A DNA stretch of 64,000 nucleotides from Thiomicrorhabdus sp. zzn3. Lineage in GTDB: Bacteria > Pseudomonadota > Gammaproteobacteria > Thiomicrospirales > Thiomicrospiraceae. The translations under genes and the position numbers were made by a program. Below, piece by piece: positions 3,101 to 61,134 of this stretch. The notes below the pieces were generated by a model. The model searched no databases. It was not told the DNA's origin and was given only the letters and a program-made list of their open reading frames with translations. Every line of letters starts with the position of its first letter. Within the stretch, counting starts at the first letter, position 1. Location: positions 558,001 to 622,000 of the forward strand of contig NZ_JARUQS010000001.1 in NCBI RefSeq assembly GCF_029767755.1, in the 5' to 3' direction.

Positions 3101-3150
3101 TGTTTTAAGCAGGCCTGTTCAGTTTTAAGCAGGCCTGTTCAGTTTTAATC
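3101..3150. repeat. Tandem 20-base repeat containing CAGGCCTG
   Basis: The unit AGTTTTAAGCAGGCCTGTTC occurs at 3101-3120 (first base T) and 3121-3140, followed by a partial third copy (AGTTTTAA). Each unit carries the octamer CAGGCCTG (3110-3117 and 3130-3137) with the flank TTCAGTTTT that recurs elsewhere in the window. It sits in the intergenic region between ppa and fbp. Confidence 0.9.
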
Positions 3151-3172
3151 GCAAATCAATTCGGTTTAAAGC

Positions 3173-3195
3173 AAAACACCCGCTTGAAGCGGGTG
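3173..3195 (-). terminator. Rho-independent terminator after fbp
   Basis: CACCCGCTT (3177-3185) and AAGCGGGTG (3187-3195) form a tight hairpin. On the minus strand it is followed by TTTTG, just after the fbp stop codon. Confidence 0.75.
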
Positions 3196-3221
3196 CTTAT
3201 CAGTCCAGTGAACTTGGCTTA

Positions 3222-4193
3222 TTACGCCTTGTGGTAGGCAACCACTTTAGCCACTTCGTTCTTCGATCCTAGTACCACTGGTACGCGATCGTGGATTCCT
3301 TGAGGCTCAACGTCCATGATGTCCATGCGACCTGTAGAAGAAGCACCGCCGGCTTGTTCCACGATCATCGACATTGGGTTCCCTTCGTACATTAGACGCA
3401 GTTTACCGGCCTTTGATGGATCACGGTTGTCGTATGGATACATGAAGATACCACCACGCACCAAGATGCGGTGAACTTCAGCCACCATAGAGGCTACCCA
3501 GCGCATGTTGTAACGTTTGCCTAAAGGACCTTCTTCACCTTTCAAACAGTCGTCGATGTACTGCTTCATTTCTGGTTCCCAGAAACGCTGGTTAGACATG
3601 TTGATCGCGAATTCTGCGGTGTCTTCTGGGATCGTGATGTTTGACTTGGTCAATACAAACTCACCGATGTTGGTGTCTAGGGTAAAGAAGTTAACGCCGT
3701 TACCGGTTGTCATGACCAAAATAACAGAAGGACCGTAAAGAACATAACCTGCGGCTACCTGGTTGCGACCGTTTTGTAGGAATACTTCTTGTTGATCGCC
3801 AGAACGATCGTCTTTCGCTTCCAGGATAGAGAAGATTGTGCCGACAGAAAGGTTGACGTCGATGTTTGAAGAACCATCTAACGGATCGAATGTTACCAAG
3901 TATTTACCGTCAGCATTTCCGGCCACAGTGTAATCTTCTTCTTCTGAACCGATTCCGCGCACGTATGGGTTTGAAACCAAGATGTCTTTCAACAGGTCGT
4001 TAGAAATAACGTCCAGTTTCTTTTGAGTTTCACCTTGAACGTTTTCATCTTCGGTTGCACCTAGGATGCCAGCCAACTCACCTTGGCCCAGTTTGTAGGC
4101 GATGTCTTTACAAGCGACCATAACGTGGTTGATGACCAGTTCCAGTTCGGCTGGTACACCGTCGGCGGCTAATACTTGATCAAGTCTTTTCAT
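3222..4193 (-). CDS. fbp: Fructose-1,6-bisphosphatase class I
   Basis: Hydrolyses fructose 1,6-bisphosphate to fructose 6-phosphate in gluconeogenesis and, in autotrophs, in the Calvin cycle. The 323-residue protein has the class I metal-site motif FDPLDGSSNID and the C-terminal GGIFMYPYDNRDPSKAGKL and YEGNPMSMIVEQAGG segments that bind the sugar phosphate. The start ATG (complement of 4191-4193) is preceded on the minus strand by AGAGAGAA, a fair ribosome binding site. It is divergent from thiI. Presence of this enzyme does not by itself show autotrophy. Confidence 0.96.
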   Translation of the reverse strand: MKRLDQVLAADGVPAELELVINHVMVACKDIAYKLGQGELAGILGATEDENVQGETQKKLDVISNDLLKDILVSNPYVRGIGSEEEDYTVAGNADGKYLVTFDPLDGSSNIDVNLSVGTIFSILEAKDDRSGDQQEVFLQNGRNQVAAGYVLYGPSVILVMTTGNGVNFFTLDTNIGEFVLTKSNITIPEDTAEFAINMSNQRFWEPEMKQYIDDCLKGEEGPLGKRYNMRWVASMVAEVHRILVRGGIFMYPYDNRDPSKAGKLRLMYEGNPMSMIVEQAGGASSTGRMDIMDVEPQGIHDRVPVVLGSKNEVAKVVAYHKA

Positions 4194-4434
4194 CGAGATT
4201 CTCTCTATATTGAATTGAAAATTGAAAAAAATTGCGGCAATTCTATCATGTTGACTTTAAAAGGTACAAGTTCATCAAGGTGGATGACAATCGCTTAAAG
4301 GGCGGGTTTGGTTGCTTTAGTCGTGAATGGCGCGGTTTGAGATGGTCTTGGGTTAACGGTTTTTTATCTGTTGGGTAAACTTGGTAGAATAGGCGTTTTG
4401 CAATCGGATAACTCCCTCAGCGGTACAGGCTTTT

Positions 4435-7436: not shown

Positions 7437-7467
7437 AGTGAAATTGAATCTATTGTAGACAAGTTTT

Positions 7468-7475
7468 CAGGCCTG
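7468..7475. repeat. CAGGCCTG element in the mltF-lpd gap
   Basis: Exact copy of the octamer that is over-represented in this window, here in the divergent intergenic region between the mltF-like gene and the dehydrogenase gene. Confidence 0.7.
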
Positions 7476-7554
7476 ACAAACCTTAATTTTAATTCCGTTG
7501 AGTCTAAGTGGTTTTGCTTAACGTTTAAATTCGTAAATTGTTGGAATAAACGCC

Positions 7555-7582: not shown

Positions 7583-7622
7583 GGAGCTTTCAATATCAAG
7601 TTTTTAAGGGAGTCGGTGGGCG

Positions 7623-12318: not shown

Positions 12319-12349
12319 AACAGGCCTGCTTATTTTAAGCAGGCCTGTT
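12319..12349. terminator. Inverted pair of CAGGCCTG elements forming a terminator-like hairpin
   Basis: AACAGGCCTGCTTA (12319-12332) and TAAGCAGGCCTGTT (12336-12349) form a perfect 14-bp stem with a three-base loop. It is followed on the plus strand by TTGGTTTT and sits between the convergent genes rlmB and the PfkB-Rieske gene, so it probably terminates transcription from one or both sides. Two octamer copies in head-to-head order mimic the paired uptake sequences used as terminators in Pasteurellaceae and Neisseria. Confidence 0.8.
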
Positions 12350-15579: not shown

Positions 15580-18228
15580 ATGATGAGTGTTGTTGAGCCA
15601 AAAGTTCATTATTTAACCGATTATCAACCTCCTGGTTTTGAGGTTGAGTCCGTGTATCTGGAGTTTGATCTTCATCCAAACCATACGTTGGTCACCAATC
15701 GAATGGTCATGAGGCAGCTTAATCCTGGAGAACTTTTGCAGCTGTCAGGTGAAGAGTTGACATTGGTTCGTGTGGCTTTAGATGGCGATGACATTACCCG
15801 GCGGTGCAAACTCTATGAGGGTGGTTTGTCCTTGGGGGTTGAGCAAGAGCGGTTTGAGCTTGAAATTGTCACGCAAATTTCGCCACAAACCAATACCTCG
15901 CTGGAAGGGCTTTACCGTACCAGTGGCAATTACTGCACCCAGTGTGAGGCTGAGGGTTTTAGAAAGATCACCTATTTTTTGGATCGGCCAGATGTTTTAA
16001 CCTTCTATACCACCAAAATTGTGGCGGATAAAGCGGATAATCGTGTTTTGCTGTCAAATGGAAACCTGATAGAGTCGGGTGAACTGCCGAATAACCGTCA
16101 TTATGCGATTTGGGAAGACCCATTCCGTAAGCCGAGCTATCTGTTTGCGTTAGTCGCAGGCAATTTGGATTATATTGAGGACCACTACATTACTGCGGAT
16201 AACCGTAAGGTGACATTGCGTATTTATGTCGAACCGCAAAATATCGATAAATGCGAGCATGCGATGGCTTCTCTCAAGAAATCGATGCGCTGGGATGAGG
16301 AGCGCTTCGGTCTGGTGTATGACCTGGATATTTACATGATTGTGGCGGTGGATGACTTCAATATGGGAGCCATGGAAAATAAAGGGTTAAATGTGTTTAA
16401 CTCCAAATATGTTCTCGCCATGCCGGAAACCGCCACCGATGTCGATTATGAGGGCATAGAAGCCGTGATTGCCCATGAGTACTTCCATAACTGGACCGGA
16501 AATCGAGTGACCTGTCGCGATTGGTTCCAGTTGACGCTTAAAGAAGGCTTGACTGTATTCCGAGATCAGGAGTTTACTTCCGACATGCTTTCGCCAGCGG
16601 TAAAGCGTATCGAAGACGTGAAGCGCCTGCGTAACCATCAGTTTCCCGAAGATGCCGGGCCGATGTCCCATCCGATTCAACCGCAGTCGTATATTGAAAT
16701 GAATAATTTCTATACGATGACGGTGTACGAAAAGGGAGCGGAAGTAGTGCGTCTCTATCATACTTTGCTGGGAGAAGAGGGTTTCCAAAAAGGGATGAAG
16801 CTCTACTTTGAACGCCACGACGGCCAGGCGGTTACGGTGCAAGATTTCAGACAAGCCATGGCCGATGCCAATGACGTTGATCTAAGCCAAATGCATCACT
16901 GGTACGTTCAAGCCGGCACGCCGAAGCTTACTGTGCGTACAGAGTATGACTCGGCAAATCGTCGTTACTCGCTGTATTGTGTTCAATCCTTGCCAAAGAT
17001 GGAGTCTGAATTCAAGCCGCTGTTGATTCCAATCAAAATGGGCTTGTTAAACGCTGAGGGGAACGCGTTGCCGTTGTTACCCTCGCAAGCGTGTGCTACG
17101 TCGGTTCAGGTCAATGGCCGTGAGGCATTATTGATTATGACTCAAACCGAGCAGACCTTTACCTTTGAATCAGTCGGTGAAGTGCCGGTTCCCGCCTTGT
17201 TAAGAGGATTTTCAGCTCCGGTTCAGCTCGATTACAAGTACAGTGACGCGGAGTTGAGCCTATTGAGTCAAGCTGACAGCGACTCTTTTGTACGCTGGGA
17301 GGCGATGCAGACTCTGTCGTTAAATGAGATCAAACGTAATATTGAGCGTTACGAAGCAGAGCAGCCTTTAATGTTATCGGATGCGTTTTTGAGTGCATTT
17401 GTATCGCTGCTGGACGATAAACAAACGGATCCGGCGTTGATTGCCTTGGCCATTACTATGCCGGATCTGACCTATATTGGCGAGCAGTACCAGCAGATCA
17501 ATGTAGATGCGGTTTATGCCGTGCAGCGTTGGGTACGGGGCGAACTGGCCAAGCGCTTCTCAAATCGTTTGCTGGCGATTTACCAAGCCTTGGCGCTGCG
17601 TTTGCAGGAAAAAGGCAGTTACGCTTACGTCAAAGAGGATATTGCCGAACGCATGTTGAAAAATACCTGTCTGGGGTATCTGCTGATGTTGGAAGCGGAT
17701 TTCTTTGAAATGGCGGAGGGGCAGTTTGATGCACAGCACAACATGACCGACGTGCTGGCTGCACTCCAGGCCATTTCGCATACCACGCATGAAAATAGAC
17801 AGGCCTGTTTGGATCGTTTTTATCAGCGGTGGTCGCATGATCCGTTAGTGCTTGATAAATGGTTTGCTTTGCAAGCCGGTTCTCATCATATTCATGCATT
17901 AGAACATGTAGAGGCGTTGGTGGAGCATCCTGATTTTCACTATGAGAATCCAAACCGGGTACGTAGTGTGCTAGGGGTTTTTGGACGTTTGAACCTGTTG
18001 GGCTTCCATCGTGCGGATGGCCAAGGGTACCGCTTTTTGGCGGATCAGGTGAGCAAATTGGATGAGATCAATCCACAGGTCGCGGCCCGAATCGTGGCGC
18101 CGTTTACACATTGGAAACGTTACGATGAGGATCGGCAGCAGTTGATGAAACAGCAGTTGGAGCGTTTGTTGGCCAAACCGGTGCTTTCAAAAGATGTCTA
18201 TGAGATTGTCTCTAAATCTTTGGCGTAA
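15580..18228 (+). CDS. pepN: Aminopeptidase N (M1 family)
   Basis: Zinc metallopeptidase that removes N-terminal residues from peptides in the cytoplasm. Alignable over its full length (about 882 residues) with E. coli PepN, including the exopeptidase motif GAMENKG (about 263) and the zinc site HEYFHNW (from about 299) with the downstream Glu in LKEGLTVF. The C-terminal four-domain architecture is complete (ALLRGFSAPVQLDYKYSD; SNPNR-like NPNRVRS). An open frame extends back to a TTG at 15562, but the ATG at 15580 (or 15583) fits the family N-terminus better. Confidence 0.95.
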   Translation: MMSVVEPKVHYLTDYQPPGFEVESVYLEFDLHPNHTLVTNRMVMRQLNPGELLQLSGEELTLVRVALDGDDITRRCKLYEGGLSLGVEQERFELEIVTQISPQTNTSLEGLYRTSGNYCTQCEAEGFRKITYFLDRPDVLTFYTTKIVADKADNRVLLSNGNLIESGELPNNRHYAIWEDPFRKPSYLFALVAGNLDYIEDHYITADNRKVTLRIYVEPQNIDKCEHAMASLKKSMRWDEERFGLVYDLDIYMIVAVDDFNMGAMENKGLNVFNSKYVLAMPETATDVDYEGIEAVIAHEYFHNWTGNRVTCRDWFQLTLKEGLTVFRDQEFTSDMLSPAVKRIEDVKRLRNHQFPEDAGPMSHPIQPQSYIEMNNFYTMTVYEKGAEVVRLYHTLLGEEGFQKGMKLYFERHDGQAVTVQDFRQAMADANDVDLSQMHHWYVQAGTPKLTVRTEYDSANRRYSLYCVQSLPKMESEFKPLLIPIKMGLLNAEGNALPLLPSQACATSVQVNGREALLIMTQTEQTFTFESVGEVPVPALLRGFSAPVQLDYKYSDAELSLLSQADSDSFVRWEAMQTLSLNEIKRNIERYEAEQPLMLSDAFLSAFVSLLDDKQTDPALIALAITMPDLTYIGEQYQQINVDAVYAVQRWVRGELAKRFSNRLLAIYQALALRLQEKGSYAYVKEDIAERMLKNTCLGYLLMLEADFFEMAEGQFDAQHNMTDVLAALQAISHTTHENRQACLDRFYQRWSHDPLVLDKWFALQAGSHHIHALEHVEALVEHPDFHYENPNRVRSVLGVFGRLNLLGFHRADGQGYRFLADQVSKLDEINPQVAARIVAPFTHWKRYDEDRQQLMKQQLERLLAKPVLSKDVYEIVSKSLA

Positions 18229-18291: not shown

Positions 18292-19683
18292 GTGAAGCGG
18301 GGTAGCAGCTTGGTAAGTGGATGGGGAGTGAGACGGCGATTGGCTTTAGTGGCTTTAAGCTGTATGTTGCCGATTCTGCCGGCGGCAAGCCTTGCCGCGT
18401 CGCAAGAGGAAATGAGCGCTGATCTCAGAAAACAGATCGAACAGATTGATCAGGAAATCTTGCTGCTGAGAGCTGAGCTGGCCCAAAGTAATGGCGATAT
18501 AGAGACATTGCGCCGCTATCTGAACCAGCTAGAACAGATGACGCTTCCTGATCGTTTTCTGGTCCGTGTCCAAGCTCTTCAGGAATTTATTCGCGATTAT
18601 CGACCATCTTCGCCCGAGCAAGGCGAAATCTTAGAGTCAGGGTTTAGTCTGCCCCAAGGTGACTCAACGGTGGTGGTGCTATTGCCGCTGACAGGGGATT
18701 ATGCCGTTGCCGGAGAGGCTATTTTATCCGGCCTTAAGAGCCGCTGGCCGTTCCATAAGGATTTCATTGTGGTTGACAGCGCGCTTTACCCAACTATGTT
18801 CGAGCTTTGGGAGCTGGTGAAGCTTTATTCTCCGGAGTTTGTCATTGGGCCTTTAAATAAAGAGAATGCGTTAGCCTGGCAGCAATTGAATACAGGGATT
18901 TCGACACTTTATTTGAATCAATTGCCTGCATTTAATGTGAATGAGAAAGCAATAGCGCCAAGCAAGTTTGATGGCTTGACGCGTTTAACCCAGTTTGCTG
19001 ACAACAATGCTTTGCGCCATCTCTTAGTTTTAACCTCAGAAAAAGACAATGCGCTGCAACTGCAATTTCAACAGGCCTGGTTGGCTCAAAATCCTTTTGC
19101 TCATTATGATGTGTCAACGGTCGATCCTGGTGTGGATCAGGGAGTGAAACAGGGACTGGGCGTCAGTGCCTCCTATGATCGCAAAGCCTGGTTGCAAAGG
19201 ACGCTGCAGACGGAGTTGGAGTTTGAGCCGCGCGCACGTCAAGATTTGGATGGTGTCATCACATTTTTAGATATGGACGAAGCCGTTCAGGTCAAGCCGT
19301 TACTGAATTTTTATCACCTCTTTGATGTCTATCATCTTTGGTATCCCGTTTCTTACCCAGATAAGGAGGCTTTTCAAGCCAATCTGCCGTTCTGGCAGCA
19401 AACTTACGCCTTTCTCCCGCCTTATATTGTTGAATCCTCCCGTGAGGATGCGGATAACTTTGACTCTTCTCAACAAGTTGGCCTGCTTTATGCTTTAGGA
19501 AGCTTGGTGGCAGAAAGCGTCAATAATCCGCTTATTCTGCAGAAGGATCGTTATGTCCAGCACTCTTTGATCGGTGAGTTGGTGAATGATTCGCAAGGAC
19601 AGTTACAGTTATTACCCAACGTCTATTGGATGGATGACAATCAGTCGCAAGCGTTTTCTTATGGCGAGACGGCTGCAGAGTAA
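18292..19683 (+). CDS. LpoA-like penicillin-binding-protein activator, probable
   Basis: 463 residues with a signal peptide ending near LPAASLAAS, a short coiled coil (about 40-85), then a periplasmic-binding-like fold with VVVLLPLTGDYAVAGEAILSGL, EFVIGPLNKENALAWQQL and TLYLNQLPAF. These segments resemble the C-terminal domain of LpoA (LppC family), which stimulates PBP1A from the outer membrane. The protein lacks a convincing lipobox and the long TPR domain of enterobacterial LpoA. The start is GTG at 18292. It follows pepN by 63 bases and may be cotranscribed. An ABC-type ligand sensor is an alternative. Confidence 0.55.
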   Translation: MKRGSSLVSGWGVRRRLALVALSCMLPILPAASLAASQEEMSADLRKQIEQIDQEILLLRAELAQSNGDIETLRRYLNQLEQMTLPDRFLVRVQALQEFIRDYRPSSPEQGEILESGFSLPQGDSTVVVLLPLTGDYAVAGEAILSGLKSRWPFHKDFIVVDSALYPTMFELWELVKLYSPEFVIGPLNKENALAWQQLNTGISTLYLNQLPAFNVNEKAIAPSKFDGLTRLTQFADNNALRHLLVLTSEKDNALQLQFQQAWLAQNPFAHYDVSTVDPGVDQGVKQGLGVSASYDRKAWLQRTLQTELEFEPRARQDLDGVITFLDMDEAVQVKPLLNFYHLFDVYHLWYPVSYPDKEAFQANLPFWQQTYAFLPPYIVESSREDADNFDSSQQVGLLYALGSLVAESVNNPLILQKDRYVQHSLIGELVNDSQGQLQLLPNVYWMDDNQSQAFSYGETAAE

Positions 19684-20901: not shown

Positions 20902-21159
20902 ATGAACGGAATTCATAAGTGGGCAGGCCTGGTATTCGCTACAGCGTGTGTCAGCGCCTTATCCGCGTGCAGTCTGTTTCCGTCATCACACTACCATCTA
21001 CCGGATTATTATGAGACTCGGACCATGCCGAAGACCTATTCGGTTGGTGTGCGTTATGAATTGGACGATTTGCGGTGCAGTCAGAACGGGGAGGGATGTT
21101 CAACCCAGAAGATTGAGCCGCGGCGTCAGTATGAAAAACCTTATTATTTGAGTAAATAA
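20902..21159 (+). CDS. Small lipoprotein of unknown function
   Basis: 85 residues. The signal peptide ends in the lipobox LSAC (Cys23), and the mature part of about 60 residues is rich in Tyr and Arg with a second Cys pair (LRCSQNGEGCS) that could form a disulfide. The coding start contains a CAGGCCTG element (20924-20931). It lies 20 bases after the unknown membrane protein gene and is directly followed by the flgP-like gene, so all three are probably one operon. No family recognised. Confidence 0.7.
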   Translation: MNGIHKWAGLVFATACVSALSACSLFPSSHYHLPDYYETRTMPKTYSVGVRYELDDLRCSQNGEGCSTQKIEPRRQYEKPYYLSK

Positions 21160-27205: not shown

Positions 27206-27229
27206 AAACTGAGCAGGCCTGTTCAGTTT
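27206..27229. repeat. Palindrome AAACTGA-g-CAGGCCTG-t-TCAGTTT
   Basis: A CAGGCCTG octamer (27214-27221) flanked on both sides by the extension normally seen on one side only (TCAGTTT), making a nearly perfect 24-base palindrome downstream of flgT. It could fold as a weak terminator. Confidence 0.75.
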
Positions 27230-40601: not shown

Positions 40602-41771
40602 ATGACAACGCACGCGCAGGATTACACCGATTCTTTGATTGCGCAAATTCGTGCGCATTATCAGACCGATCATTTTATTCCATTGCACGCCCCCTGTTTT
40701 GGTGGCGAAGAAAAACGCCTGGTCACCGACTGCATTGACAGCACCTTTGTCTCCTCGGTCGGGGAATATGTCAGCCAATTTGAGGAAGCGTTTGTCCACT
40801 ACACCGGCGCCAAACATGCGGTGGCGGTGGTCAACGGAACCATGGGTCTGTTTTTAGCGTTAAAAGTGGCGGGCGTGCAGCCCGGTGACCTGGTATTGAC
40901 ACAATCGTTGACCTTTGTCGCGACGGCCAATGCTATCAAAATGCTGGGCGCCGAGCCGGTGTTTCTGGATATCGATGCTGCGTCCTACGGCTTGTCTGCC
41001 GACGTATTACAAGCGTTCTTGCATGAGCAGACCGTTGTAAAGGATGGCCTTTGCATTCATGAGAGCAGCGGACGAGTCGTTAGGGCTTGCGTGCCGATGC
41101 ACACCCTGGGCTTCCCGGCGGAGATTGATCGTCTTGTGGATGTGTGTGACGGGTTCAAGATAAAACTGGTTGAAGATGCGGCGGAGAGTTTAGGCAGTTT
41201 TTATCGAGGCAAACATACCGGTACGTTCGGTGATCTGGGCGTGTTCAGTTTCAACGGTAATAAGATTCTGACCACCGGTGGTGGTGGCATGTTAATTACC
41301 AATGATGACGCATTGGCGCGGCATGCCAAGCACTTGAGCACCACCGCCAAAGTGCCGCATGCCTGGCGGTTTGAACACGATGAGATTGCCTATAACCTGC
41401 GACTGCCCAATCTCAATGCGGCATTAGGGGTGGCGCAAATGGCGCAGCTGGACGCTTTTCTCGCCGAGAAACACGCTTTGGCTCAACATTATCAAAACGA
41501 AATCGCCAAACACCCAGGCCTGTTGAGTTTGCAGGGATTGGCACCGAGCCAACCCAACTATTGGTTAAATGGTCTGATTGTCAAACAGGCGGTAGAGCGA
41601 GATGCGTTTTTACAAAGGACGAATGAGGCCGGCATTCAAACGCGTCCTTTATGGACGCCGATGCATCAACTCGATATTTATGCCGATTGCTTACACAGTG
41701 AGATGCCGAATACCGAGTGGTTAGCGGAACGCGTCGTCAATTTACCCAGCGGAGTGAGGTGTCATGGCTGA
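40602..41771 (+). CDS. legC: PLP-dependent aminotransferase, legionaminic-acid pathway (LegC)
   Basis: DegT/DnrJ/EryC1-family enzyme that would aminate C4 of the 4-keto sugar. 389 residues with FVALKVAG-type start region, the PLP site EDAAESLGSFYRGKHTG and the Schiff-base lysine in FSFNGNKILTTGGGG. The C-terminus reads VVNLPSGVRCHG. It follows legB by 27 bases, and legH begins eight bases before its stop codon. Confidence 0.87.
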   Translation: MTTHAQDYTDSLIAQIRAHYQTDHFIPLHAPCFGGEEKRLVTDCIDSTFVSSVGEYVSQFEEAFVHYTGAKHAVAVVNGTMGLFLALKVAGVQPGDLVLTQSLTFVATANAIKMLGAEPVFLDIDAASYGLSADVLQAFLHEQTVVKDGLCIHESSGRVVRACVPMHTLGFPAEIDRLVDVCDGFKIKLVEDAAESLGSFYRGKHTGTFGDLGVFSFNGNKILTTGGGGMLITNDDALARHAKHLSTTAKVPHAWRFEHDEIAYNLRLPNLNAALGVAQMAQLDAFLAEKHALAQHYQNEIAKHPGLLSLQGLAPSQPNYWLNGLIVKQAVERDAFLQRTNEAGIQTRPLWTPMHQLDIYADCLHSEMPNTEWLAERVVNLPSGVRCHG

Positions 41772-42399: not shown

Positions 42400-43397
42400 C
42401 AGTGTTTGTGATTGCCGAAGCCGGGGTGAATCATAATGGCTCTTTGGAATTGGCAAAACAACTGGTGGATGCCGCGGTTGAGGCCGGGGCGGATGCGGTC
42501 AAATTTCAGACCTTCAAGACCGAAAACCTGGTAACCGAAAGTGCGCAACAGGCCGACTACCAAAGCGAAAATACCGGGGTGAAGGAAAGTCAGTTCGCCA
42601 TGCTCAAGCGCTTGGAACTCAGCGAGCAGGATCATCAGGTTTTGTTTGATTGCTGCGCAGAGCGCGGCATTGAATTCATGTCCACGCCGTTTGACGACGA
42701 CAGTATTGTTTTTCTGCATCAACTGGGCATGCAACGCTGGAAAATTCCTTCCGGCGAGTTGTTGTCGATTCCCTATTTGCGCAAGATCGCCGCTTTCAAT
42801 CAACCCACCATTCTGTCGACCGGTATGGGCAATCTCGAAGAGGTGGCGCTGGCGATTGAGACGTTGTTTCAGGCAGGCCTGTCCAAATCCAATTTAACCG
42901 TTTTACATGCCAATACCGCTTACCCGACGCCCTATGAAGATGTGAACTTACGTGCCATGAATACGCTGCAGCAGCGTTTTCAAGTCTCAACAGGCCTGTC
43001 CGACCACTCCCCGGGCATAGAGGTGCCGATCGCCGCCGCTGCATTGGGTGCGAGTGTGATTGAAAAGCACTTTACCTTGGATCGAAATATGCCCGGCCCG
43101 GATCATAAAGCGAGTCTGGAACCGCACGAGCTGAAGCAGATGGTCCAAGCCATTCGCCATATTGAATTGGCGATGGGCAGCGGCGACAAGGTCGCTTCCG
43201 CTTCTGAGCAGGGCAACCGCAGTGTCGCGCGTAAGCGTATTGTGGCGGCTCGTGACATTTCCGCTGGCGAGGTGTTTAGAGAAAGTAATTTAACCCTTAA
43301 ACGCAGTGATCAAGGGTGTTTTGCGCAGCAGTGGGATCAATTGATTGGCAAGGTGGCCAGCAAGGATTATCAGTTGGGGGAGGGGATTGATGTCTGA
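42396..43397 (+). CDS. legI: Nonulosonate synthase of NeuB family (LegI)
   Basis: Condenses a 6-deoxy-mannose derivative with phosphoenolpyruvate to a nine-carbon keto acid, probably legionaminic acid. 333 residues; all family hallmarks are present: AEAGVNHNGS, AVKFQTFK, STPFDD, KIPSGELLSIP, HANTAYPTPYEDVNL, TGLSDHSPG and IEKHFTLDR, followed by a C-terminal SAF domain (AARDISAGEVFRESNL). Contrast with the second, divergent NeuB-like protein at 48138. Two CAGGCCTG elements (42874 and 42991) lie inside it. Confidence 0.9.
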   Translation: MTVFVIAEAGVNHNGSLELAKQLVDAAVEAGADAVKFQTFKTENLVTESAQQADYQSENTGVKESQFAMLKRLELSEQDHQVLFDCCAERGIEFMSTPFDDDSIVFLHQLGMQRWKIPSGELLSIPYLRKIAAFNQPTILSTGMGNLEEVALAIETLFQAGLSKSNLTVLHANTAYPTPYEDVNLRAMNTLQQRFQVSTGLSDHSPGIEVPIAAAALGASVIEKHFTLDRNMPGPDHKASLEPHELKQMVQAIRHIELAMGSGDKVASASEQGNRSVARKRIVAARDISAGEVFRESNLTLKRSDQGCFAQQWDQLIGKVASKDYQLGEGIDV

Positions 43398-48105: not shown

Positions 48106-48122
48106 AAAACTGAACAGGCCTG
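48106..48122. repeat. Extended CAGGCCTG element (AAAACTGAACAGGCCTG)
   Basis: Full-length copy of the extended repeat in the gap between hisH2 and the divergent neuB-like gene, in reverse orientation relative to the copies at 3110 and 3130. Confidence 0.8.
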
Positions 48123-49209: not shown

Positions 49210-50274
49210 ATGGCGACAGACTTTTGGTTGCCGGATGCGCCTGCCTTTTTGGGATTTCATCCTCCCGAGCTTGACTGGCAAGCGTTCGACTTGGATCAAG
49301 AAGCAAAAACTGAACAGGCCTGGTCAGATTTGTTTGCCGTGTTGCACGATCACTATTCACAACCGTTTCAACTGCTGAAATTGCAGACTCATCATCCAAT
49401 ACCCTATGGTTTTTTTCGTGTGGTAGGTGAAGGCTTTGACCATTTTCTTAAAGTGGTGACAGCGCAACAGGCCGATAGATTGATTCAAGCCAACGAGGTG
49501 GCAGGCTGGCTGAATCAGCAGGGAATGGGGGTCAGCCTACTGCAGAATGCGCCGGGCTGGCAACTGAATTCCGAGGCCCACCTTCTTAGCTACCGCTATC
49601 TGAACGGACGTTTCGGTTCGGCATCGATCACCGATATGCAACAACTCGGTGAAGCTTTAGCCAAACTGCATTTGGCGTTGGCCGACTATCCCGATCAACA
49701 CGCAGTCGAACAGTCAGGCACGTGCCGACATAATGGATTGAAAGCGCGTTTAAAGGAGGTAAGGCACGATAACGCTGATCTGCCTGAGGAAGTTAAGGAA
49801 ATTTTATATCGATATCCCGAAGACAGTTTGGACGTCTTGGTGGAAGATGCCCAGATGGTTCACGGCGATCTGAATATGGGGAATGTGTGGTTTACCGAGC
49901 GGGAGTGCGTGTTTCTGGATTTGGAAGACAGTTTGACCGCCTGGTTTTCCCCGATGAAAGATTTGGCGTTTGTCTTGGAGCGTTTTGTCCTGACTCATAA
50001 CCATCGGGAGCATCAGGTTTTGGGCGAAGCCTTTCTTCAGGCCTACTACCGGATGCATCACAATCGTTTTAATCATCCTGAGCATGCTGCCGACTTGTTA
50101 CAGGCGCTTGCGGTGCGGGCGTTGTTGATTTTGATCGAATCGGCGCGGCATCAGCAAATCCCCTTAGCGAATGAGTGGAAAAAGTTCGTGTTTTTGTATA
50201 AGCTAGCTGACCATAAGCGAACTCTTTTACAAAGCATTTTATGTCGAGCTGCCGAAAGCGCATCAAGCTGTTAA
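49210..50274 (+). CDS. Aminoglycoside/choline-kinase-like phosphotransferase
   Basis: 354 residues with the kinase core of the APH/choline kinase fold: catalytic VHGDLNMGN (His218, Asp220, Asn225 region) and the metal-binding FLDLED about 17 residues later. The ATP-side N-lobe is less distinct. It starts one base after the stop of the divergent neuB-like gene and overlaps the next gene by 34 bases, so the three are tied in one transcript. Substrate unknown; a sugar or nonulosonate precursor is more likely than an antibiotic in this setting. A full extended CAGGCCTG element lies within it (49306-49322), coding KTEQAW. Confidence 0.7.
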   Translation: MATDFWLPDAPAFLGFHPPELDWQAFDLDQEAKTEQAWSDLFAVLHDHYSQPFQLLKLQTHHPIPYGFFRVVGEGFDHFLKVVTAQQADRLIQANEVAGWLNQQGMGVSLLQNAPGWQLNSEAHLLSYRYLNGRFGSASITDMQQLGEALAKLHLALADYPDQHAVEQSGTCRHNGLKARLKEVRHDNADLPEEVKEILYRYPEDSLDVLVEDAQMVHGDLNMGNVWFTERECVFLDLEDSLTAWFSPMKDLAFVLERFVLTHNHREHQVLGEAFLQAYYRMHHNRFNHPEHAADLLQALAVRALLILIESARHQQIPLANEWKKFVFLYKLADHKRTLLQSILCRAAESASSC

Positions 50275-51371
50275 TTACTGCACGGGATCCTGCGACGGCA
50301 GTCTCTTTTCAAATTCTGATTCCGCAACTTATCAAACATCACGGTTTTGAGATCAAAGTTCTGGCGCAAGCGCCTGCCTCTGACATGCTCATGGCCGTTT
50401 ATCCGCAGTTGGATGAATTTTTCCCTCAATCGAGCCTTGAGCTGAAACAGCAAAAAGTCAAAGCCGTCATTGACGCTTTCAAACCCGATGCGGTGTTATG
50501 TGGCATTTCCGGGCCCGATATCGGTGTGGATGAAGCGACCCTGAAAGTGGCGCAGGATCAAGGCATAGAAAGTTATGCGCTGCAAAGTTTCTGGGGTGAT
50601 ATCAACCAGCTTTCAGGTGCGGTGCCAAAACATGCTTTCGTATTGGATGACGAGGCGGTTCGACTCACCGAACAGCGTTATCCGCAAATTCGTTCCATTG
50701 CGATCGGTTCGATCAAACATGCCGACTTCAAAGGGTATGACGTTCTTAAACTCCGCGATCAAAAACGAACAGGCCTGCTCAAGAAGGATGAAATTCTGGT
50801 CAGCTTTTACGGTCAGCCAATTTTAGAGGTAGAAGGCTATTTCACCACCTTGGAAGCAATGGTTCGCCAGCTTACAAAGTGGTCGAGACCGTTTAAACTG
50901 ATGTATCGACCGCACCCAAAAGAATCTCAGGAACTGTTTGATAAAACCTGGCAGTTGTTCAGTGATGCGTTTTCGGAGCGATTATTGCTTGATCAATCCG
51001 CAGACATTGTTGAAAGTTTATGCATGAGTGACCTGGTGGTCAGTGTGTTCTCAACCTGCGGGTTTGACAATCTTTATCTCAATGAGATGTCGGCTCAGCC
51101 GTTTAACAGCAGTGTTTATCTATGGTTTGACCCCAACATGATTGAATGGTGGCAGAGATACAGCGGATTAACGGAAATGCCGTTGATCAGTGAAGGTTTA
51201 CTGCTTTCGGCCGATACAGAAGATGAAATTCTGACGGTTTTTGACGAAGGCTTGAATCCGGACGTGCAAAAACGGCTGTGGATCAAAGCAAAACAGCATT
51301 TGCCGGATCCTTCACTAGCGGTGAAGACCATTATTGATACCTTACTGGATGATTTAGATGCAGCTATTTGA
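50241..51371 (+). CDS. Possible GT-B-fold glycosyltransferase, unknown
   Basis: 376 residues; family not certain. The N-terminal half reads like a Rossmann domain (KLLITARDPATAVSFQILIPQL, KPDAVLCGISGPDIG), and the second half has FKLMYRPHPKESQELF followed by VVSVFSTCGFDNLYL, a pattern shared by CDP-glycerol transferases and NeuC-like or polysialyltransferase-like GT-B proteins. No signal or membrane segment. Overlaps the kinase gene by 34 bases and the next gene by 14. No later ATG would keep the first strand, which supports the overlapping start. Confidence 0.55.
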   Translation: MSSCRKRIKLLITARDPATAVSFQILIPQLIKHHGFEIKVLAQAPASDMLMAVYPQLDEFFPQSSLELKQQKVKAVIDAFKPDAVLCGISGPDIGVDEATLKVAQDQGIESYALQSFWGDINQLSGAVPKHAFVLDDEAVRLTEQRYPQIRSIAIGSIKHADFKGYDVLKLRDQKRTGLLKKDEILVSFYGQPILEVEGYFTTLEAMVRQLTKWSRPFKLMYRPHPKESQELFDKTWQLFSDAFSERLLLDQSADIVESLCMSDLVVSVFSTCGFDNLYLNEMSAQPFNSSVYLWFDPNMIEWWQRYSGLTEMPLISEGLLLSADTEDEILTVFDEGLNPDVQKRLWIKAKQHLPDPSLAVKTIIDTLLDDLDAAI

Positions 51372-53142: not shown

Positions 53143-53171
53143 ATAACGAGATGATGAGAGAAAGGGGAAGC

Positions 53172-55640
53172 ATGGAATTCGATTTTGGACAGTTAACGAC
53201 AAACCAGTTTGGAGAAGCCTATTTTCAAGCGATTAACCATGACACCTTTGCAGACCACTCGGCGGAATCCGTTTATCAGCGTTACTATCCAGAGATTCTA
53301 GAAGAAGAGGATCGCCTTAATATTATCGTCGGTTCCGACTCCGGGCTTTTTTACCGTTATTTGACTTCTCTGGATACGCTTCCGAAAAACAGCTTTTTTA
53401 TCTTCATTGATTACGCCAATGCCTTTGAGCATTTGGAGCTTGAACCTTCATCAATCAGTGATCAGGTGCAGATTTACGCGGACCCGTTTGATTTCGATCA
53501 GTTGGCGGTCCATTTCATGCCTTATGTGATCCGCCAAAAAGTCTCTTTGATTCGTTCCCTGGCCGTACAGGATGCGCAGCAGCCAGCGTATAAGACGTTA
53601 GCCAACTATTACGAAGAACGCTATGGCCATTTCATTCGCCAGGAACTGATCTCATTAAACTCAAAGCCCTTTATTGATGCGCAATTGGATAACATTGCCG
53701 ATAACTTGGTGCCTTTAAGTGTGGTAAGAAACCAGTTGGAAGGGGCGACCGCTTTGATTCTAGGCGGTGGGCCGACACTCGATCAAGCGATTGAGTGGAT
53801 TAAGGAAAATCAGCAGAAAGTGGTGATCTTTGCCGCTGCGCGTATTGCGAAACGCCTTTTAAAAGAAGGGATTAAGGTCGATATTTTTGTTTCAGTGGAT
53901 CCGCATGATGTCAGTTTTGACAACTCTAAAGGCATCTTCAGTTTTGCTGAAGAAAGTCTGCTGATACACAGTCATCATATTAATCCTCGCTTGTTGTCAC
54001 AATGGACGGGAGTCAGCACCTATCTCAAAGACCGTTACCCGTGGAGTGCAGGAGAAGAACCGAATGTTTCCTCACCGGGTCCGAATGTGATGAATACCGC
54101 AACCAACATCGCGGTCGAACTGGGCTGTAACACCATTATTTTTTCCGGTGTCGATTTATGTTTCGTGGGAACGCAGGCCTTCGAGTCTGGCAGTGCGGAA
54201 GCGAAAGTGGGTGGAAAGTATGTGTTTGCCGACGCGCAGAAAGTGGAAACCAATGCCGGCACTGTGAGCGAGACCCAGCCAATGTACGCGGCGAGTAGAG
54301 AGATGCTGGAACAGCAAGTCTCTTTGTATTTGCAACAAAAGCCGTCACTTCAGTTTGTGACTTTAGGTTTGGATTCGGCCAGAATTCAAAATGTTCAATA
54401 TGTAGCGCCCTCCGAGTTAGTTCTCTCGGGAGAGAGTATTGCGTTTGAAATTGAGTTGATGCGACAGAACTTGTCGATTGAACCGGCCGAGCGTCTTAAA
54501 AAGCTGAATGAAACCAAGAAAGAGCTGCAAAAGCAGCAGAAGCGCTTCCATGAGTTGTCTAAAGTCGGTAAAGAGTCGTTGAAAACCATATCGAAGTTGT
54601 ATGACGATAACGGCCAAGAAAACCTGAAGGCGTCTAAGAAAATCCATAAAAGCAAAAACCAAGTGTTCAAGTTGATCGGCGATGACGGGGATATGCTGTT
54701 CCACTATGAGCAAAGTACCCTGACCAATAACTTCAAGCCCATTGAAAATGAACTTGAGATGGCGCAGTCCGATATTACGGAACAGCTCGAAAGCTTTTTC
54801 AATGGTATCAGCAGAGCCTCCGAACTCTTTTTGGAAGCGCTGAAAAAAGCGGTCGATCGAGTAGATCTTAGAGTGCGTGAGCTTAAAGGCGATTCGCCTA
54901 TGGATTTGCACGAACAGTGGGAGGCCTGTGCAGAATATGGCAGAGCTCTGTTGTGGGAGAAATGGAATCCAAGTCGTTTAGCGACCTTATCTGAAGCGGA
55001 ACAAGCTGTTTTGGAAAAAGAAAAATCGCTCTTTCAGCAGGAAGTTGAGCAAGAGCAGACTCAGCAACTGGCTTCTCTTAAGGAAAGTAGTGAAAACCTG
55101 CCTCTCTTATTGCGAAGAGCAGATAAAGCCTTTGAGGATAAGGATTTTCAGGAGCTGGAATCTATTCTGGGGCATCTGGAGTCGATTACAGGCCTGACAG
55201 GGCTGGATGACCTAAAGCAATATGTGTCTGCGATGCAGTTGACCTTAAAAGCAGAAGGGCAGGCCGCCTTGACTCAGTTTGAAGCGATTGAGTTTCTGCC
55301 GATTCGTCACCAGGCCCTAAAAAGAGCGCTGGATATTGCCACTCAGGCAAGAATGAACGAGAAGGCTTTAGAGCTACTAGAGGCATTGTGTCGTTTTTCA
55401 CTCGACTATATGCTTCCTTATGCCAGCCTCTTGGAGATATTGGGCCACCCGCAAGTGGCGATCGAAGTGATTAAACTCTATTTACAGAATCATCCCAAAA
55501 ATGAGGCGGTAAAAGTTCAGCTGGCTCAACGATATATTCGTCTTCAAGCGTTAGACGAAGCAAAAGAAATATTGCACCAAGTGTTGGTGGATTCGCCAAA
55601 CAACCAGACGGCACGGGCATTGTTAGAGCAATTGAGTTGA
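53172..55640 (+). CDS. maf: Maf-family flagellin glycosyltransferase (DUF115)
   Basis: Transfers a nonulosonate from CMP to Ser/Thr of flagellin. 822 residues from the ATG at 53172 (AGGGGA nine bases upstream; an upstream in-frame ATG at 53151 is possible). The central MAF_flag10/DUF115 domain shows ALILGGGPTLDQAIEWIKEN, VDIFVSVDPHDVS, SSPGPNVMNTATNIAVELG and IIFSGVDLCFVG. It is followed by a long coiled coil and a TPR-like C-terminus (AIEVIKLYLQNHPKNEAVKVQ). Placement between the CMP-sugar genes and the flagellin genes supports the role. Confidence 0.87.
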   Translation: MEFDFGQLTTNQFGEAYFQAINHDTFADHSAESVYQRYYPEILEEEDRLNIIVGSDSGLFYRYLTSLDTLPKNSFFIFIDYANAFEHLELEPSSISDQVQIYADPFDFDQLAVHFMPYVIRQKVSLIRSLAVQDAQQPAYKTLANYYEERYGHFIRQELISLNSKPFIDAQLDNIADNLVPLSVVRNQLEGATALILGGGPTLDQAIEWIKENQQKVVIFAAARIAKRLLKEGIKVDIFVSVDPHDVSFDNSKGIFSFAEESLLIHSHHINPRLLSQWTGVSTYLKDRYPWSAGEEPNVSSPGPNVMNTATNIAVELGCNTIIFSGVDLCFVGTQAFESGSAEAKVGGKYVFADAQKVETNAGTVSETQPMYAASREMLEQQVSLYLQQKPSLQFVTLGLDSARIQNVQYVAPSELVLSGESIAFEIELMRQNLSIEPAERLKKLNETKKELQKQQKRFHELSKVGKESLKTISKLYDDNGQENLKASKKIHKSKNQVFKLIGDDGDMLFHYEQSTLTNNFKPIENELEMAQSDITEQLESFFNGISRASELFLEALKKAVDRVDLRVRELKGDSPMDLHEQWEACAEYGRALLWEKWNPSRLATLSEAEQAVLEKEKSLFQQEVEQEQTQQLASLKESSENLPLLLRRADKAFEDKDFQELESILGHLESITGLTGLDDLKQYVSAMQLTLKAEGQAALTQFEAIEFLPIRHQALKRALDIATQARMNEKALELLEALCRFSLDYMLPYASLLEILGHPQVAIEVIKLYLQNHPKNEAVKVQLAQRYIRLQALDEAKEILHQVLVDSPNNQTARALLEQLS

Positions 55641-56655: not shown

Positions 56656-56664
56656 AAAATTTGA

Positions 56665-56690
56665 GGGTTAGGTCAATTGTCCTGACCCTT
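56665..56690 (+). terminator. Weak terminator-like hairpin after the first flagellin
   Basis: GGGTTAGG (56665-56672) and CCTGACCC (56681-56688), one G-U pair; followed by TTAAATATATT, not a pure T run. May trim rather than stop the transcript. Confidence 0.5.
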
Positions 56691-56795
56691 AAATATATTA
56701 GAGCCCTGCTCTAAATAAGCTGCCAATTATAGGTAGTGCAATATAGTTAGAAACCCACAAGGGTTCAAGCTAACAACTCAAAAAGGAGATTTATC

Positions 56796-57620: not shown

Positions 57621-57665
57621 AATAAGCTCGCTCTTTAAAATTAAGCGCAGTTTAGGAGAGCAGGT

Positions 57666-58067: not shown

Positions 58068-58091
58068 ATATCGATTGTTCAAGGAGTGGTT

Positions 58092-58580: not shown

Positions 58581-58603
58581 TATTTAGTTTCCCTTGTGTG
58601 TTT

Positions 58604-58626
58604 AGCGGTCTTTGACCGCTTTTTTT
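58604..58626 (+). terminator. Rho-independent terminator after flaG2
   Basis: AGCGGTC (58604-58610) and GACCGCT (58614-58620), followed by TTTTTT. Confidence 0.9.
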
Positions 58627-58685
58627 ATGTCTGCTATTTTTTTATTATTAAAGTTATCTGTGTCATGGCCGCTAAAAAGGTTAGA

Positions 58686-58702
58686 TGGCATTTATTATGC
58701 TG
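58686..58702 (+). promoter_or_regulatory. Sigma-54 promoter of fliDST
   Basis: TGGCAT-N5-ATGCTG; GG (58687-58688) and GC (58699-58700) are ten bases apart, 65 bases before fliD. Confidence 0.82.
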
Positions 58703-58764
58703 GTTAAACACAGATTCACTAAAATAAGTGAACAGCTTAAATCTTATCGACCAGGAGCCCCGTT

Positions 58765-61110
58765 ATGGCAAATGAAATTGGAAATGCGTTACTTACAAGC
58801 TTAACAAACAGTTCTTTTGATATTGGTAATATGTCTAAAGTATTGGCTGAAGCTGAAGTGGCGGGGCCTAGAGCAATTCTGGAAAAAAATCAGGAAAAGG
58901 TTTCTACAGAATTGGATGCTTTAAAGTATCTGAAAACAAACCTGGAAGCGTTTAATACCTATTTAACGGATTTATCCTCTCCCGATACATTTGGACAGAA
59001 AAATGTCACATCGTCGAATGATGGTATTGTATCGGTATCTGCATCGAGTACAGCGGCCTTAGCCTCGTATCAAATTGAGTCAAAACAGCTTGCTCAAGCT
59101 CATACCTTGGTGGCTAACCAGGGTTATAGCTCGCCGTCGGATACAATTTCCGCCGGGACGCTCTCCATTCAAGTCGGTGGACAGTCTCATTCGATCACCG
59201 TCGATGCCTCAAATAATACTTTAGAGGGACTGCAAAAAGTGATTAATAATGGGGATTACGGTGTCACCGCCTCCATTATTAATAACGGCGGCAGCTATCA
59301 AATGATGTTTACCTCTAAGGAAACCGGTGCAGCTGGCGAGGTTAGCATTTCTGGTCTAGCCGATTTTGATACGGCTGGATTCACCACAACGGCAGAGGCA
59401 CAAGATGCCGTGATGGTTCTAAATGGGTTGACAGTGACCAGTTCTACCAATACCTTCGATTCGGTCATTGAAGGGGTTAGTTTTCAGCTTAACTCGGCTT
59501 CTCCTGGGGTGATGAATGCCGTTTCGGTAGGTCAAGACTCGGAAGGGGTTAAAGAGGCCATTACCAGCTTTGTTGATGTCTATAACCAACTTGATACGAT
59601 CTTGGACGAATTGGGAAGTTACAGTACCGATGAACTTACCGCCGAAGAGCTTGAGTCTGAAGAGTATCAATACTATGGCGATTTGGCCGGAAGCAGTTTG
59701 CTTCGATCGGTCAAATACCAGGTGCGTGAATCTCTGTCTGGGGCCATGGAAATGTTGAGTGGCAGCAGTTATCAGTCCTTAACAGATATAGGTATTAGCT
59801 TTGATCGTGAAGGGAAGTTGGTACTCGATAGTGCTAAATTGGATTCGGCTATTTCAAGTGATATGCAAGCCGTTTCCAGTTTGTTCTCTAAAGGAGGTTC
59901 CAGCAGCGATCCCCTTATCAATGTCATTTCCGGTGGAGACAATACACAAACAGGAAATTACGACCTGAACATTACCCAATTGGCGGAGCGCGCAGCCGTT
60001 ACCGGTGGGGCGGCAATATTTTCCACAGATCAGCGTCTTTCTGGTGATCGGGTCATTGACAGTACCGCGGCATTAACCATTGATGCCGGTGCTTCTTTTA
60101 CTTTAGATGTCGTGGGGGGGCCTAACGCCGGTACCTTTAATGTCGATTTGACTGCGGTAGCAGGAACCTATGCCAGTAAGGATGAGGTGGCTGCAGCGAT
60201 CCAGTCACAGCTTGGTGGTGCGCCTGTCACGGTGGCTTATGATAGCGCCCAGTCACGGTTTGAAATTACCGCTAACGCCGGGGAAGGTTCTGTCACCTTG
60301 TCTAATATTGTCGGCTTAAATAATCAGGGCTTTTCACAAGCCTCTTATGCAGGTGAAAACCTGATTGATTTGAGTGGTGCAGATGCTACATTTAATGTCA
60401 AAATTGATGACGCAACGGCTTCGGCGGTGACCATTCAGGCCGGGCGCTATACATTAGATGAGTTGTCTCAAACCATGGCGACGAGCATTAATAACAACGC
60501 CGATGTTAAAGCGGCGGGTGCTCAAGTGAGTGTGACTAACGATGGTAATGCGATGACGATTACCTCATCTCGTTTTGGCGCATTCTCTACGGTTGAATTA
60601 ACAGGGTTTACAGGGTTTGCTTCAGCAGGGTTTACTGCCGATTTGACTGATGTTGGTCAAAATGTGGATGGCACCATCACCACGGCAAGCGGAACACTTA
60701 ATATCGGTGCTTATGCGGATGCTGAGGATGGGCGTTTGGTTAAAATCAGTGATTATGCGGTCATCGCAGGTAACCCGGCTGAAGTTCAAGGTTTGCAGTT
60801 TGAAGTGCTCGGCGGTTTGACCGGAGCGCGCGGCACGATCACCTATGAGCAAGGTTTTGCCAGTAAGCTTGAAGAGACTATTGGCAACCTGTTTGATTCC
60901 GATTACGGCTTGATTGGGCAAAGAATTGATAGCTTGAACAACAAAATGGATAAGTATTCAGAGAAGTCGGATGATATTGACGCTCGTTATGAGCGTTTAT
61001 TGATGAAATATCAACTTCAGTTTTCTGCTTTGCAGTCGATAATATCCAGTACAGAGCAGACAAGAAATTATCTGTCGGCGACATTCAGCAACAACAATAA
61101 CAATAATTAA
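58765..61110 (+). CDS. fliD: Flagellar filament cap protein, long form
   Basis: 781 residues; enteric FliD is about 470. N-terminal coiled part (AEVAGPRAILEKNQEKVSTELDALKYLKTNLEAF) and C-terminal coil (IDSLNNKMDKYSEKSDDIDARYERLLMKYQLQFSALQSII) are typical. The enlarged middle (about 395-690) has repeated flagellin-IN-like units (TFNVDLTAV...; TFNVKIDDAT...), giving a bigger surface domain. Ends in a run of Asn. First gene of fliDST after the sigma-54 promoter. Confidence 0.94.
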   Translation: MANEIGNALLTSLTNSSFDIGNMSKVLAEAEVAGPRAILEKNQEKVSTELDALKYLKTNLEAFNTYLTDLSSPDTFGQKNVTSSNDGIVSVSASSTAALASYQIESKQLAQAHTLVANQGYSSPSDTISAGTLSIQVGGQSHSITVDASNNTLEGLQKVINNGDYGVTASIINNGGSYQMMFTSKETGAAGEVSISGLADFDTAGFTTTAEAQDAVMVLNGLTVTSSTNTFDSVIEGVSFQLNSASPGVMNAVSVGQDSEGVKEAITSFVDVYNQLDTILDELGSYSTDELTAEELESEEYQYYGDLAGSSLLRSVKYQVRESLSGAMEMLSGSSYQSLTDIGISFDREGKLVLDSAKLDSAISSDMQAVSSLFSKGGSSSDPLINVISGGDNTQTGNYDLNITQLAERAAVTGGAAIFSTDQRLSGDRVIDSTAALTIDAGASFTLDVVGGPNAGTFNVDLTAVAGTYASKDEVAAAIQSQLGGAPVTVAYDSAQSRFEITANAGEGSVTLSNIVGLNNQGFSQASYAGENLIDLSGADATFNVKIDDATASAVTIQAGRYTLDELSQTMATSINNNADVKAAGAQVSVTNDGNAMTITSSRFGAFSTVELTGFTGFASAGFTADLTDVGQNVDGTITTASGTLNIGAYADAEDGRLVKISDYAVIAGNPAEVQGLQFEVLGGLTGARGTITYEQGFASKLEETIGNLFDSDYGLIGQRIDSLNNKMDKYSEKSDDIDARYERLLMKYQLQFSALQSIISSTEQTRNYLSATFSNNNNNN

Positions 61111-61126
61111 TTAGAATCAGACTCAG

Positions 61127-61134
61127 CAGGCCTG
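61127..61134. repeat. CAGGCCTG element between fliD and fliS
   Basis: Exact octamer in the 58-base gap between fliD and fliS. Confidence 0.7.

What the first reader, a model, noticed from the sequence alone, without database searches (positions are those of the whole stretch)
3110..61134. CAGGCCTG occurs at least 21 times in 64 kb: a candidate uptake sequence or highly iterated palindrome
Counted by eye, exact copies start at 3110, 3130, 7468, 12321, 12340, 17800, 19072, 20924, 27214, 32709, 38301, 39912, 40495, 41515, 42874, 42991, 48115, 49315, 50770, 55189 and 61127. An eight-base word is expected about once per 64 kb. Many copies share a one-sided extension, CAGGCCTGTTCAGTTTT or its complement, in genes and between genes and in several reading frames, so selection acts on DNA rather than protein. 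This is how DNA uptake sequences behave (core plus AT-rich flank). An alternative is a highly iterated palindrome tied to a methyltransferase, like HIP1 of cyanobacteria; the one-sided extension argues for uptake. I do not recall this word being described.
Basis: partly seen in the sequence, partly recalled or inferred. Interest (0 to 1): 0.85.

Follow-up and report, generated by a model that had tools for sequence, protein, structure and literature searches.

The report
Candidate DNA-uptake signal in vent bacteria
A short DNA word repeated hundreds of times in these sulfur-oxidising bacteria, and respelled in related species, behaves like an address label for taking up DNA from their own kind; if tests confirm it, they would join the two bacterial families known to use such labels.

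Summary
Confirmed and genome-wide: 21 copies of CAGGCCTG in the window (0.66 expected) and 859 in the 2.37-Mb genome. In its family (Thiomicrorhabdus, Hydrogenovibrio, Thiomicrospira) 32 of 62 genomes carry 236-1173 copies, the other 30 at most 74; in a class sample the densest genome outside has 82 per Mb, against 363 here. Six of the 30 carry a respelled word instead: CCGGCCTG (2), CCGGCCGG (1), CCAGGCTGGG (1), CCAGGTTGGG (2). Three of these four are not palindromes and, where sampled, have an A/T-rich flank on one side only. That suggests an orientation-reading receptor, as for Neisseriaceae DUS and Pasteurellaceae USS, and speaks against a methylation-linked palindrome; 13 of 32 word-rich genomes lack both methyltransferase families searched. 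Sites are enriched between genes, most between convergent ones. Best reading: a third, independently spelled family of DNA-uptake signals with dialects (0.7). Uptake was not tested, no receptor was identified, and no PilQ match reached its cut-off.

The parts
3110..3117 (+). CAGGCCTG with 9/9 right flank TTCAGTTTT; intergenic; pair with 3130
3130..3137 (+). CAGGCCTG with 9/9 right flank; intergenic
7468..7475 (.). CAGGCCTG, between divergent ORFs, weak flanks
12321..12328 (.). CAGGCCTG, between convergent ORFs, left flank 7/9; pair with 12340
12340..12347 (.). CAGGCCTG, between convergent ORFs, right flank 7/9; one word lies at the aligned place in Thiomicrorhabdus sp. ZW0627
17800..17807 (.). 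CAGGCCTG in the pepN ORF; kept in ZW0627
19072..19079 (.). CAGGCCTG in ORF 18292-19683; kept in ZW0627
20924..20931 (.). CAGGCCTG outside ORFs of 100 aa or more; not kept in ZW0627
27214..27221 (.). CAGGCCTG, intergenic, both flanks match (7/9 and 8/9)
32709..32716 (.). CAGGCCTG in ORF 32675-33385, flanks 6/9 and 7/9
38301..38308 (.). CAGGCCTG in ORF 38261-39505
39912..39919 (.). CAGGCCTG in the legB-like ORF 39579-40574
40495..40502 (.). CAGGCCTG in the legB-like ORF 39579-40574
41515..41522 (.). CAGGCCTG in ORF 40602-41771, right flank 7/9
42874..42881 (.). CAGGCCTG in ORF 42396-43397
42991..42998 (.). CAGGCCTG in ORF 42396-43397, left flank 6/9
48115..48122 (-). CAGGCCTG, between ORFs on the + strand, 9/9 extension read on the other strand
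49315..49322 (.). CAGGCCTG in ORF 49210-50274, flanks 9/9 and 7/9
50770..50777 (-). CAGGCCTG in ORF 50241-51371, left flank 7/9
55189..55196 (.). CAGGCCTG in ORF 53151-55640
61127..61134 (.). CAGGCCTG, intergenic after the fliD-like ORF

Best explanation
CAGGCCTG plus its flanks is this species' spelling of a family-wide DNA-uptake signal. Proposed mechanism: a surface DNA receptor, probably a pilin-class protein as ComP is in Neisseria, binds the word on free DNA; a pilus-like machine draws the fragment in, ComEC passes one strand, and recombination puts it into the chromosome. Because word-bearing (own-species) DNA is taken up best, copies arising by mutation are spread by transformation and accumulate wherever genes tolerate them, most densely behind genes. 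When the receptor changes, the word drifts into a dialect. Aligned by eye, four of the five spellings share an oriented core with a T-run on its 3' side: CAGGCCTGTTCAGTTTT (this genome), CCGGCCTGTTGAGTTTT (T. cannonii), CAG-CCTGGCAGATTTT (G007), CAACCTGGCAGATTTT (G008 = H. marinus, and G013). In most word-bearing species the core is a palindrome, so a site could be read from either side and both flanks carry the signal. Shown here: enrichment, concentration in one family, dialects, orientation in the non-palindromic dialects, intergenic bias, presence of ComEC. Inferred: the uptake function, the receptor class, and the spread by transformation.
For: 859 copies genome-wide and 236-1173 in 32 of 62 family genomes, against at most 82 per Mb outside the family in a class sample. 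Four other words in 6 of the 30 remaining genomes: CCGGCCTG 1111 and 633 copies, CCGGCCGG 1217, CCAGGYTGGG 331, 371 and 403 against at most 15 in the other 59. One-sided flanks in the non-palindromic dialects: 9.8 against 1.2 bits (G007, 18 sites), 10.1 against 0.8 (G008 plus G013, 21 sites), 3.5 against 1.0 (G023, 42 sites). Both strands used about equally and no leading-strand bias by local GC skew (9:9, 13:8, 20:20). 135 of 321 sites lie in the 10.6% of sequence outside long ORFs, p=1.5e-47; 4.85 per kb between convergent, 1.37 between tandem, 0.68 between divergent ORFs; Neisseria DUS are also reported to favour intergenic regions and terminators. ComEC in 56 of 62 genomes and in 36 of the 38 that bear a word. 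Prepilin-type proteins in 17 of 17 genomes checked. Sites partly kept and partly turned over against one relative.
Against: No uptake or transformation data. No receptor: the one pilin followed is missing from many word-bearing genomes. PilQ reached its curated cut-off in none of 62 genomes, though also in only 1 of 14 control genomes. ComEC is also present in 20 of the 24 genomes without a known word. In this genome and in the CCGGCCGG dialect (2.9 and 2.1 bits on the two sides) the flanks are on both sides, which suits a symmetric reader. The intergenic excess was not significant in 3 of 12 other samples (G052 1 of 14, G054 2 of 10, G061 2 of 9 sites). Some genomes outside the family also exceed the backwards-word control strongly (338 against 20 in 4.1 Mb); these were not followed.
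Confidence: 0.7

Rival explanations
1. A highly iterated palindrome created or kept by a DNA methyltransferase and biased repair, as proposed for HIP1 of cyanobacteria.
For: Palindromic GC-rich core, flank preference on both sides in this genome, replacement by other words in relatives: all have counterparts among HIPs.
Against: Three of the five words are non-palindromic with one-sided flanks. PF00145 (C5 methyltransferase) is absent from 21 of 32 CAGGCCTG-rich genomes, this one among them; PF01555 is found in 13 of 32, this one among them; 13 of 32 lack both. Other methyltransferase families were not searched.
Confidence: 0.08
2. Binding sites of a symmetric chromosome-organising or regulatory protein (dimer) spread over the genome.
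For: In this genome both flanks carry the same consensus and correlate weakly positively; several other species and the CCGGCCGG dialect also show flanks on both sides.
Against: A homodimer does not readily explain non-palindromic dialects with one-sided flanks. Of the 859 sites, the 100 listed run through the first 285 kb and the sampled stretches elsewhere hold sites too, so they are not confined to one domain. They are rarest between divergent ORFs.
Confidence: 0.13
3. Intrinsic transcription terminators: palindrome plus T-run behind genes.
For: 70% of 164 distances from an upstream stop codon to an intergenic site are under 60 bases; convergent regions are densest.
Against: 186 of 321 classified sites are inside ORFs. 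Symmetric extension of 4 bp or more in only 15% of convergent sites; folding energy not clearly different from coding sites (p=0.10). A terminator needs no fixed 8-base core. At most a secondary use.
Confidence: 0.04
4. Remnants of a small mobile repeat, or a recombination hot-spot word such as Chi.
For: Short, abundant, on both strands, genome-specific.
Against: Flank conservation fades within about 10 bases; no leading-strand bias in the oriented dialects, though on few sites.
Confidence: 0.05

Closest known systems
Pasteurellaceae uptake signal sequence (USS)
   Same: Hundreds of copies or more, core plus AT-rich flank on one side (clear in the dialects CCAGGYTGGG and CCGGCCTG), variants within one family
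   Different: Unrelated core sequence; one nearby T-run rather than the two AT-rich regions described for USS; most word-bearing species here have a palindromic core; uptake untested
Neisseriaceae DNA uptake sequence (DUS)
   Same: Dialects within a family, intergenic preference and reported terminator association, hundreds to thousands of copies; overlapping dyad-symmetric DUS pairs occur in Simonsiella muelleri
   Different: Different sequence; lower density (859 in 2.37 Mb here, about 1900 in 2.2-2.3 Mb in N. meningitidis and N. gonorrhoeae); receptor ComP is known there, none here
HIP1 (highly iterated palindrome) of cyanobacteria
   Same: Over-represented palindromic octamer with palindromic extensions, replaced by other words in some relatives
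   Different: No matching pattern in the two methyltransferase families searched; strictly oriented dialects here

Membership tests
DUS/USS uptake signals | Short word far above expectation through the whole genome | tested here: met
   859 copies, about 24 expected by shuffle rate; 32 of 62 family genomes with 236-1173
DUS/USS uptake signals | Oriented (non-palindromic) element on both strands | tested here: inconclusive
   Met in CCGGCCTG, CCAGGCTGGG and CCAGGTTGGG genomes; not met in this genome, where core and flanks are two-sided, nor in the CCGGCCGG genome
DUS/USS uptake signals | Dialects among related species | tested here: met
   Five words in one family
DUS/USS uptake signals | Sites in genes and, enriched, between genes | tested here: met
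   135 of 321 sites in 10.6% of sequence, convergent regions densest; significant in 9 of 12 other samples
DUS/USS uptake signals | Competence machinery (ComEC, type IV pilus, PilQ-type secretin) | tested here: inconclusive
   ComEC in 56 of 62, prepilins in 17 of 17 checked; PilQ model over cut-off in 0 of 62 and in 1 of 14 controls, weaker matches in 57 of 62; DprA, ComEA and PilT not searched
DUS/USS uptake signals | Sequence-specific receptor (minor pilin such as ComP) | tested here: inconclusive
   One candidate pilin followed over 62 genomes, not consistent with the word's distribution; other pilins not followed that far
DUS/USS uptake signals | Word raises uptake or transformation | not testable with these tools
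   needs a bench assay
HIP1-like palindromes | Palindromic word (one extended form in Oscillatoria PCC 10802 is an exception in the paper) | tested here: not met
   CCGGCCTG and CCAGGYTGGG are non-palindromic; CAGGCCTG and CCGGCCGG are palindromic
HIP1-like palindromes | Cognate methyltransferase generally present where the word is frequent | tested here: inconclusive
   13 of 32 word-rich genomes lack both PF00145 and PF01555; other methyltransferase families not searched
Chi-like recombination words | Leading-strand bias (recalled) | tested here: not met
   9:9, 13:8, 20:20 by local GC skew in three dialect samples; few sites

The most novel reading that the evidence does not exclude
A third, independently spelled family of DNA-uptake signals, in sulfur-oxidising chemoautotrophs, in which the signal has moved between palindromic and one-sided spellings among related species: a palindromic uptake signal that can be read from either side, possibly served by a pilus machine without canonical PilQ.
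Probability: 0.6. Interest if true: 0.85.

Novelty: new variant of a known kind. Interest (0 to 1): 0.75.

Why it matters
[quoted passage not shown] A third family, with palindromic and one-sided dialects in related species and with cultured members, would let the origin, drift and loss of uptake specificity be compared across independent cases, and would give a fresh set of word-receptor pairs for finding what a receptor needs in order to read DNA. It would also mean that these primary producers of vents and sulfidic sediments limit gene exchange by dialect.

Tried and rejected
One-sided flank in this genome: rejected (log-likelihood 635.9 against 641.9, sd 10.9, for re-paired flanks; 18 and 33 of 100 re-pairings as good for coding and intergenic sites). 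The flank correlation of 0.27 fell to 0.12 and 0.11 once coding and intergenic sites were separated, so strong dyad pairing is not shown either.

Methyltransferase families PF00145 and PF01555 as cause: not consistent. Solitary pilin between a xerC-like and an hslV-like gene (these names, and 'orthologue', are my reading of the sequences) as receptor: 9 other genomes have it at 54% identity or more; with this genome that makes 10, of which 9 bear a word and one (G030) bears none, but word-bearing G021, G022, G028 and G047, among others, have no match above 40% identity. Prepilin-bearing stretches were compared in 17 genomes without a pattern that tracks the word; the three CCAGGYTGGG genomes lack two genes (a response-regulator-like one and its neighbour) found in 13 of the other 14, G052 being the other exception, but the three are one genus. 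Terminator reading: weak. Even spacing: not found. Replichore test on strand lists of G007 and G008: not informative because their origins are unknown; for G008 that script used 56 sites where a recount of the listing gives 53. Search of the word's letters in papers gives 848 hits, of which I saw 15 listed titles and abstract starts, none on this subject. Searches for 'uptake sequence' with Hydrogenovibrio, Thiomicrospira and Thiomicrorhabdus gave no paper; only open-licence papers are held there, and the T. crunogena XCL-2 genome paper (its DOI recalled) was not held. Eight of the 24 genomes with no known word were sampled, 40-100 kb each, without a clear word; weak leads not followed are GCTGTACAGC in G031 and CCTGCAGG in G017. 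The other 16 were not sampled.

Rows dropped or missing: one site of 322 within 20 bases of a stretch end, and 5 of 135 intergenic sites that could not be given a neighbour type; duplicate flank strings; G042 and G017 gave only short contigs (G017 was sampled later); G037 was not sampled, so its dialect rests on the count alone. High counts of CCGGCCTG in GC-rich G019 (410; control 171) and in G006 (315; control 174) were taken as background, not as dialects.
Full report
Observation. All 21 copies of CAGGCCTG are exact at the stated coordinates; shuffles give 0.66. The window lies in a 2.37-Mb genome of 6 contigs that holds 859 copies against 21 of the word read backwards. In 445 kb the octamer is 15 times over a second-order Markov expectation, the highest ratio among 8-mers seen 30 times or more.

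Where it occurs. In the order, which is one family of 62 genomes in 7 genera, 32 carry 236-1173 copies and 30 carry 0-74. In a class sample of 370 genomes (five rows from this family) the highest counts outside the family are 338 in 4.1 Mb and 320 in 4.8 Mb, that is 82 and 67 per Mb; this genome has 363 per Mb and the least dense of the 32 has 118. The backwards-word control is low in many of those outside genomes too (20 and 34 in these two), so it overstates enrichment; I rely on density and shuffles. The family name Thiomicrospiraceae is recalled. In named 8-22 kb loci, T. chilensis and the five Thiomicrospira loci carry the word, Hydrogenovibrio sp. JE_KL2 carries CCAGGYTGGG, and T. heinhorstiae and T. 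marina show none of the words.

Dialects. T. cannonii (G023) has 1111 and G037 has 633 copies of CCGGCCTG, a non-palindrome. G027 has 1217 CCGGCCGG. G007, G008 and G013 have 331, 371 and 403 CCAGGYTGGG, against 15 or fewer in the other 59; the listed copies are CCAGGCTGGG in G007 and CCAGGTTGGG in G008 (listing capped), and the sample of G013 shows CCAGGTTGGG. So 38 of 62 genomes carry one of five words. The full Hydrogenovibrio form is AAAATCT(A/G)CCAGG(C/T)TGGG, with 9.8-10.1 bits in the A/T-side flank and 0.8-1.2 in the other; in T. cannonii 3.5 against 1.0 bits; in G027 (palindromic word, 22 sites) 2.9 and 2.1. Reverse-complemented, the non-palindromic forms align with the window's word as core plus 3' T-run. 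This alignment is mine, by eye.

Flanks in this genome. Over 845 kb and 322 sites, both flanks carry the same consensus (t)TCA(g)TTT, stronger between genes (4.26 bits per flank) than in genes (1.55); a one-sided model is not better than re-paired flanks. At 301 sites of the 781 kb outside the window, 99 have a good flank on one side only and 38 on both.

Placement. 135 of 321 classified sites lie in the 10.6% outside ORFs of 90 aa or more (p=1.5e-47): 4.85 per kb convergent, 1.37 tandem, 0.68 divergent. ORFs stand in for genes; no annotation was available. In other genomes the intergenic excess reached p below 0.05 in 9 of 12 samples, not in G052, G054 and G061. Against ZW0627, of six homologous places in the first 21 kb, three keep the word (12321/12340, 17800, 19072) and three do not (3110/3130, 7468, 20924). 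The rRNA operon contig has none.

Genes. ComEC: 56 of 62 genomes; absent among word-bearing genomes only in G036 and G037, both fragmented assemblies. PF00145: absent in 21 of 32 CAGGCCTG-rich genomes, this one among them. PF01555: present in 13 of 32, in this genome as one match in a 1125-aa frame; two of the 13 have only matches below cut-off. PilQ model: none of 62 over cut-off (1 of 14 controls over it); weaker matches in 57 of 62, in this genome and G031 a few kb from a cluster of prepilin matches. In G052 (1128 copies) such a match lies directly before an ATPase with an MshEN domain and a GspF-like gene. A ComEC tree of 30 genomes needs at least 4 gains or losses of the CAGGCCTG label, 2 of them forced by well-supported branches.

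Literature seen. PMC3630211: abstract, sections 'DUS dialects' and 'DUS counts', passages. PMC12616744: abstract and Introduction. PMC4390886: abstract, sections 2.3 and 2.4, first part of 3.4. PMC6501319: passages. PMC6797543: search listing with start of abstract only.

Judgement. The pattern (genome-wide, concentrated in one family, dialects of which four share an oriented core and T-run, gene-end preference, ComEC) fits an uptake signal best. The non-palindromic dialects are the main evidence against methylation or a symmetric binding protein. What is missing is the function itself and the receptor. I put the uptake reading at 0.7.

Noticed in passing
window 35325-61110: Flagellar genes (flgK-like, fliD-like) flank a nonulosonate-type sugar cluster (LegB 39579-40574, WbuX-like 44697-46013, weak PseD match 53151-55640), suggesting flagellin glycosylation.
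   Followed up: no
L041:506-13649 (genome G007): Two long ORFs (690 and 3697 aa) of many near-identical repeats at the start of the contig, adhesin-like by eye.
   Followed up: no
62 genomes of the order: No PilQ match over its curated cut-off although ComEC and prepilins are common; the weaker secretin matches lie in some genomes beside prepilin or MshEN-ATPase genes.
   Followed up: partly
L249:3957-4574: A solitary prepilin-like gene between xerC-like and hslV-like genes, with matches of 54-63% identity in 9 other genomes of the genus.
   Followed up: partly
this genome, e.g. window 3110/3130 and 12321/12340: Close word pairs: 5 under 45 bp against 1.6 expected among the first 100 sites; 6 under 60 bp against 3.2 in 445 kb. 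Possibly terminators.
   Followed up: partly
class sample, e.g. genomes G257 and G151: Outside the family, a few genomes hold 300 or more copies of the word with few of the backwards word (338 against 20, 320 against 34).
   Followed up: no
16 of the 24 genomes without a known word: Not sampled; further dialects may exist there.
   Followed up: no
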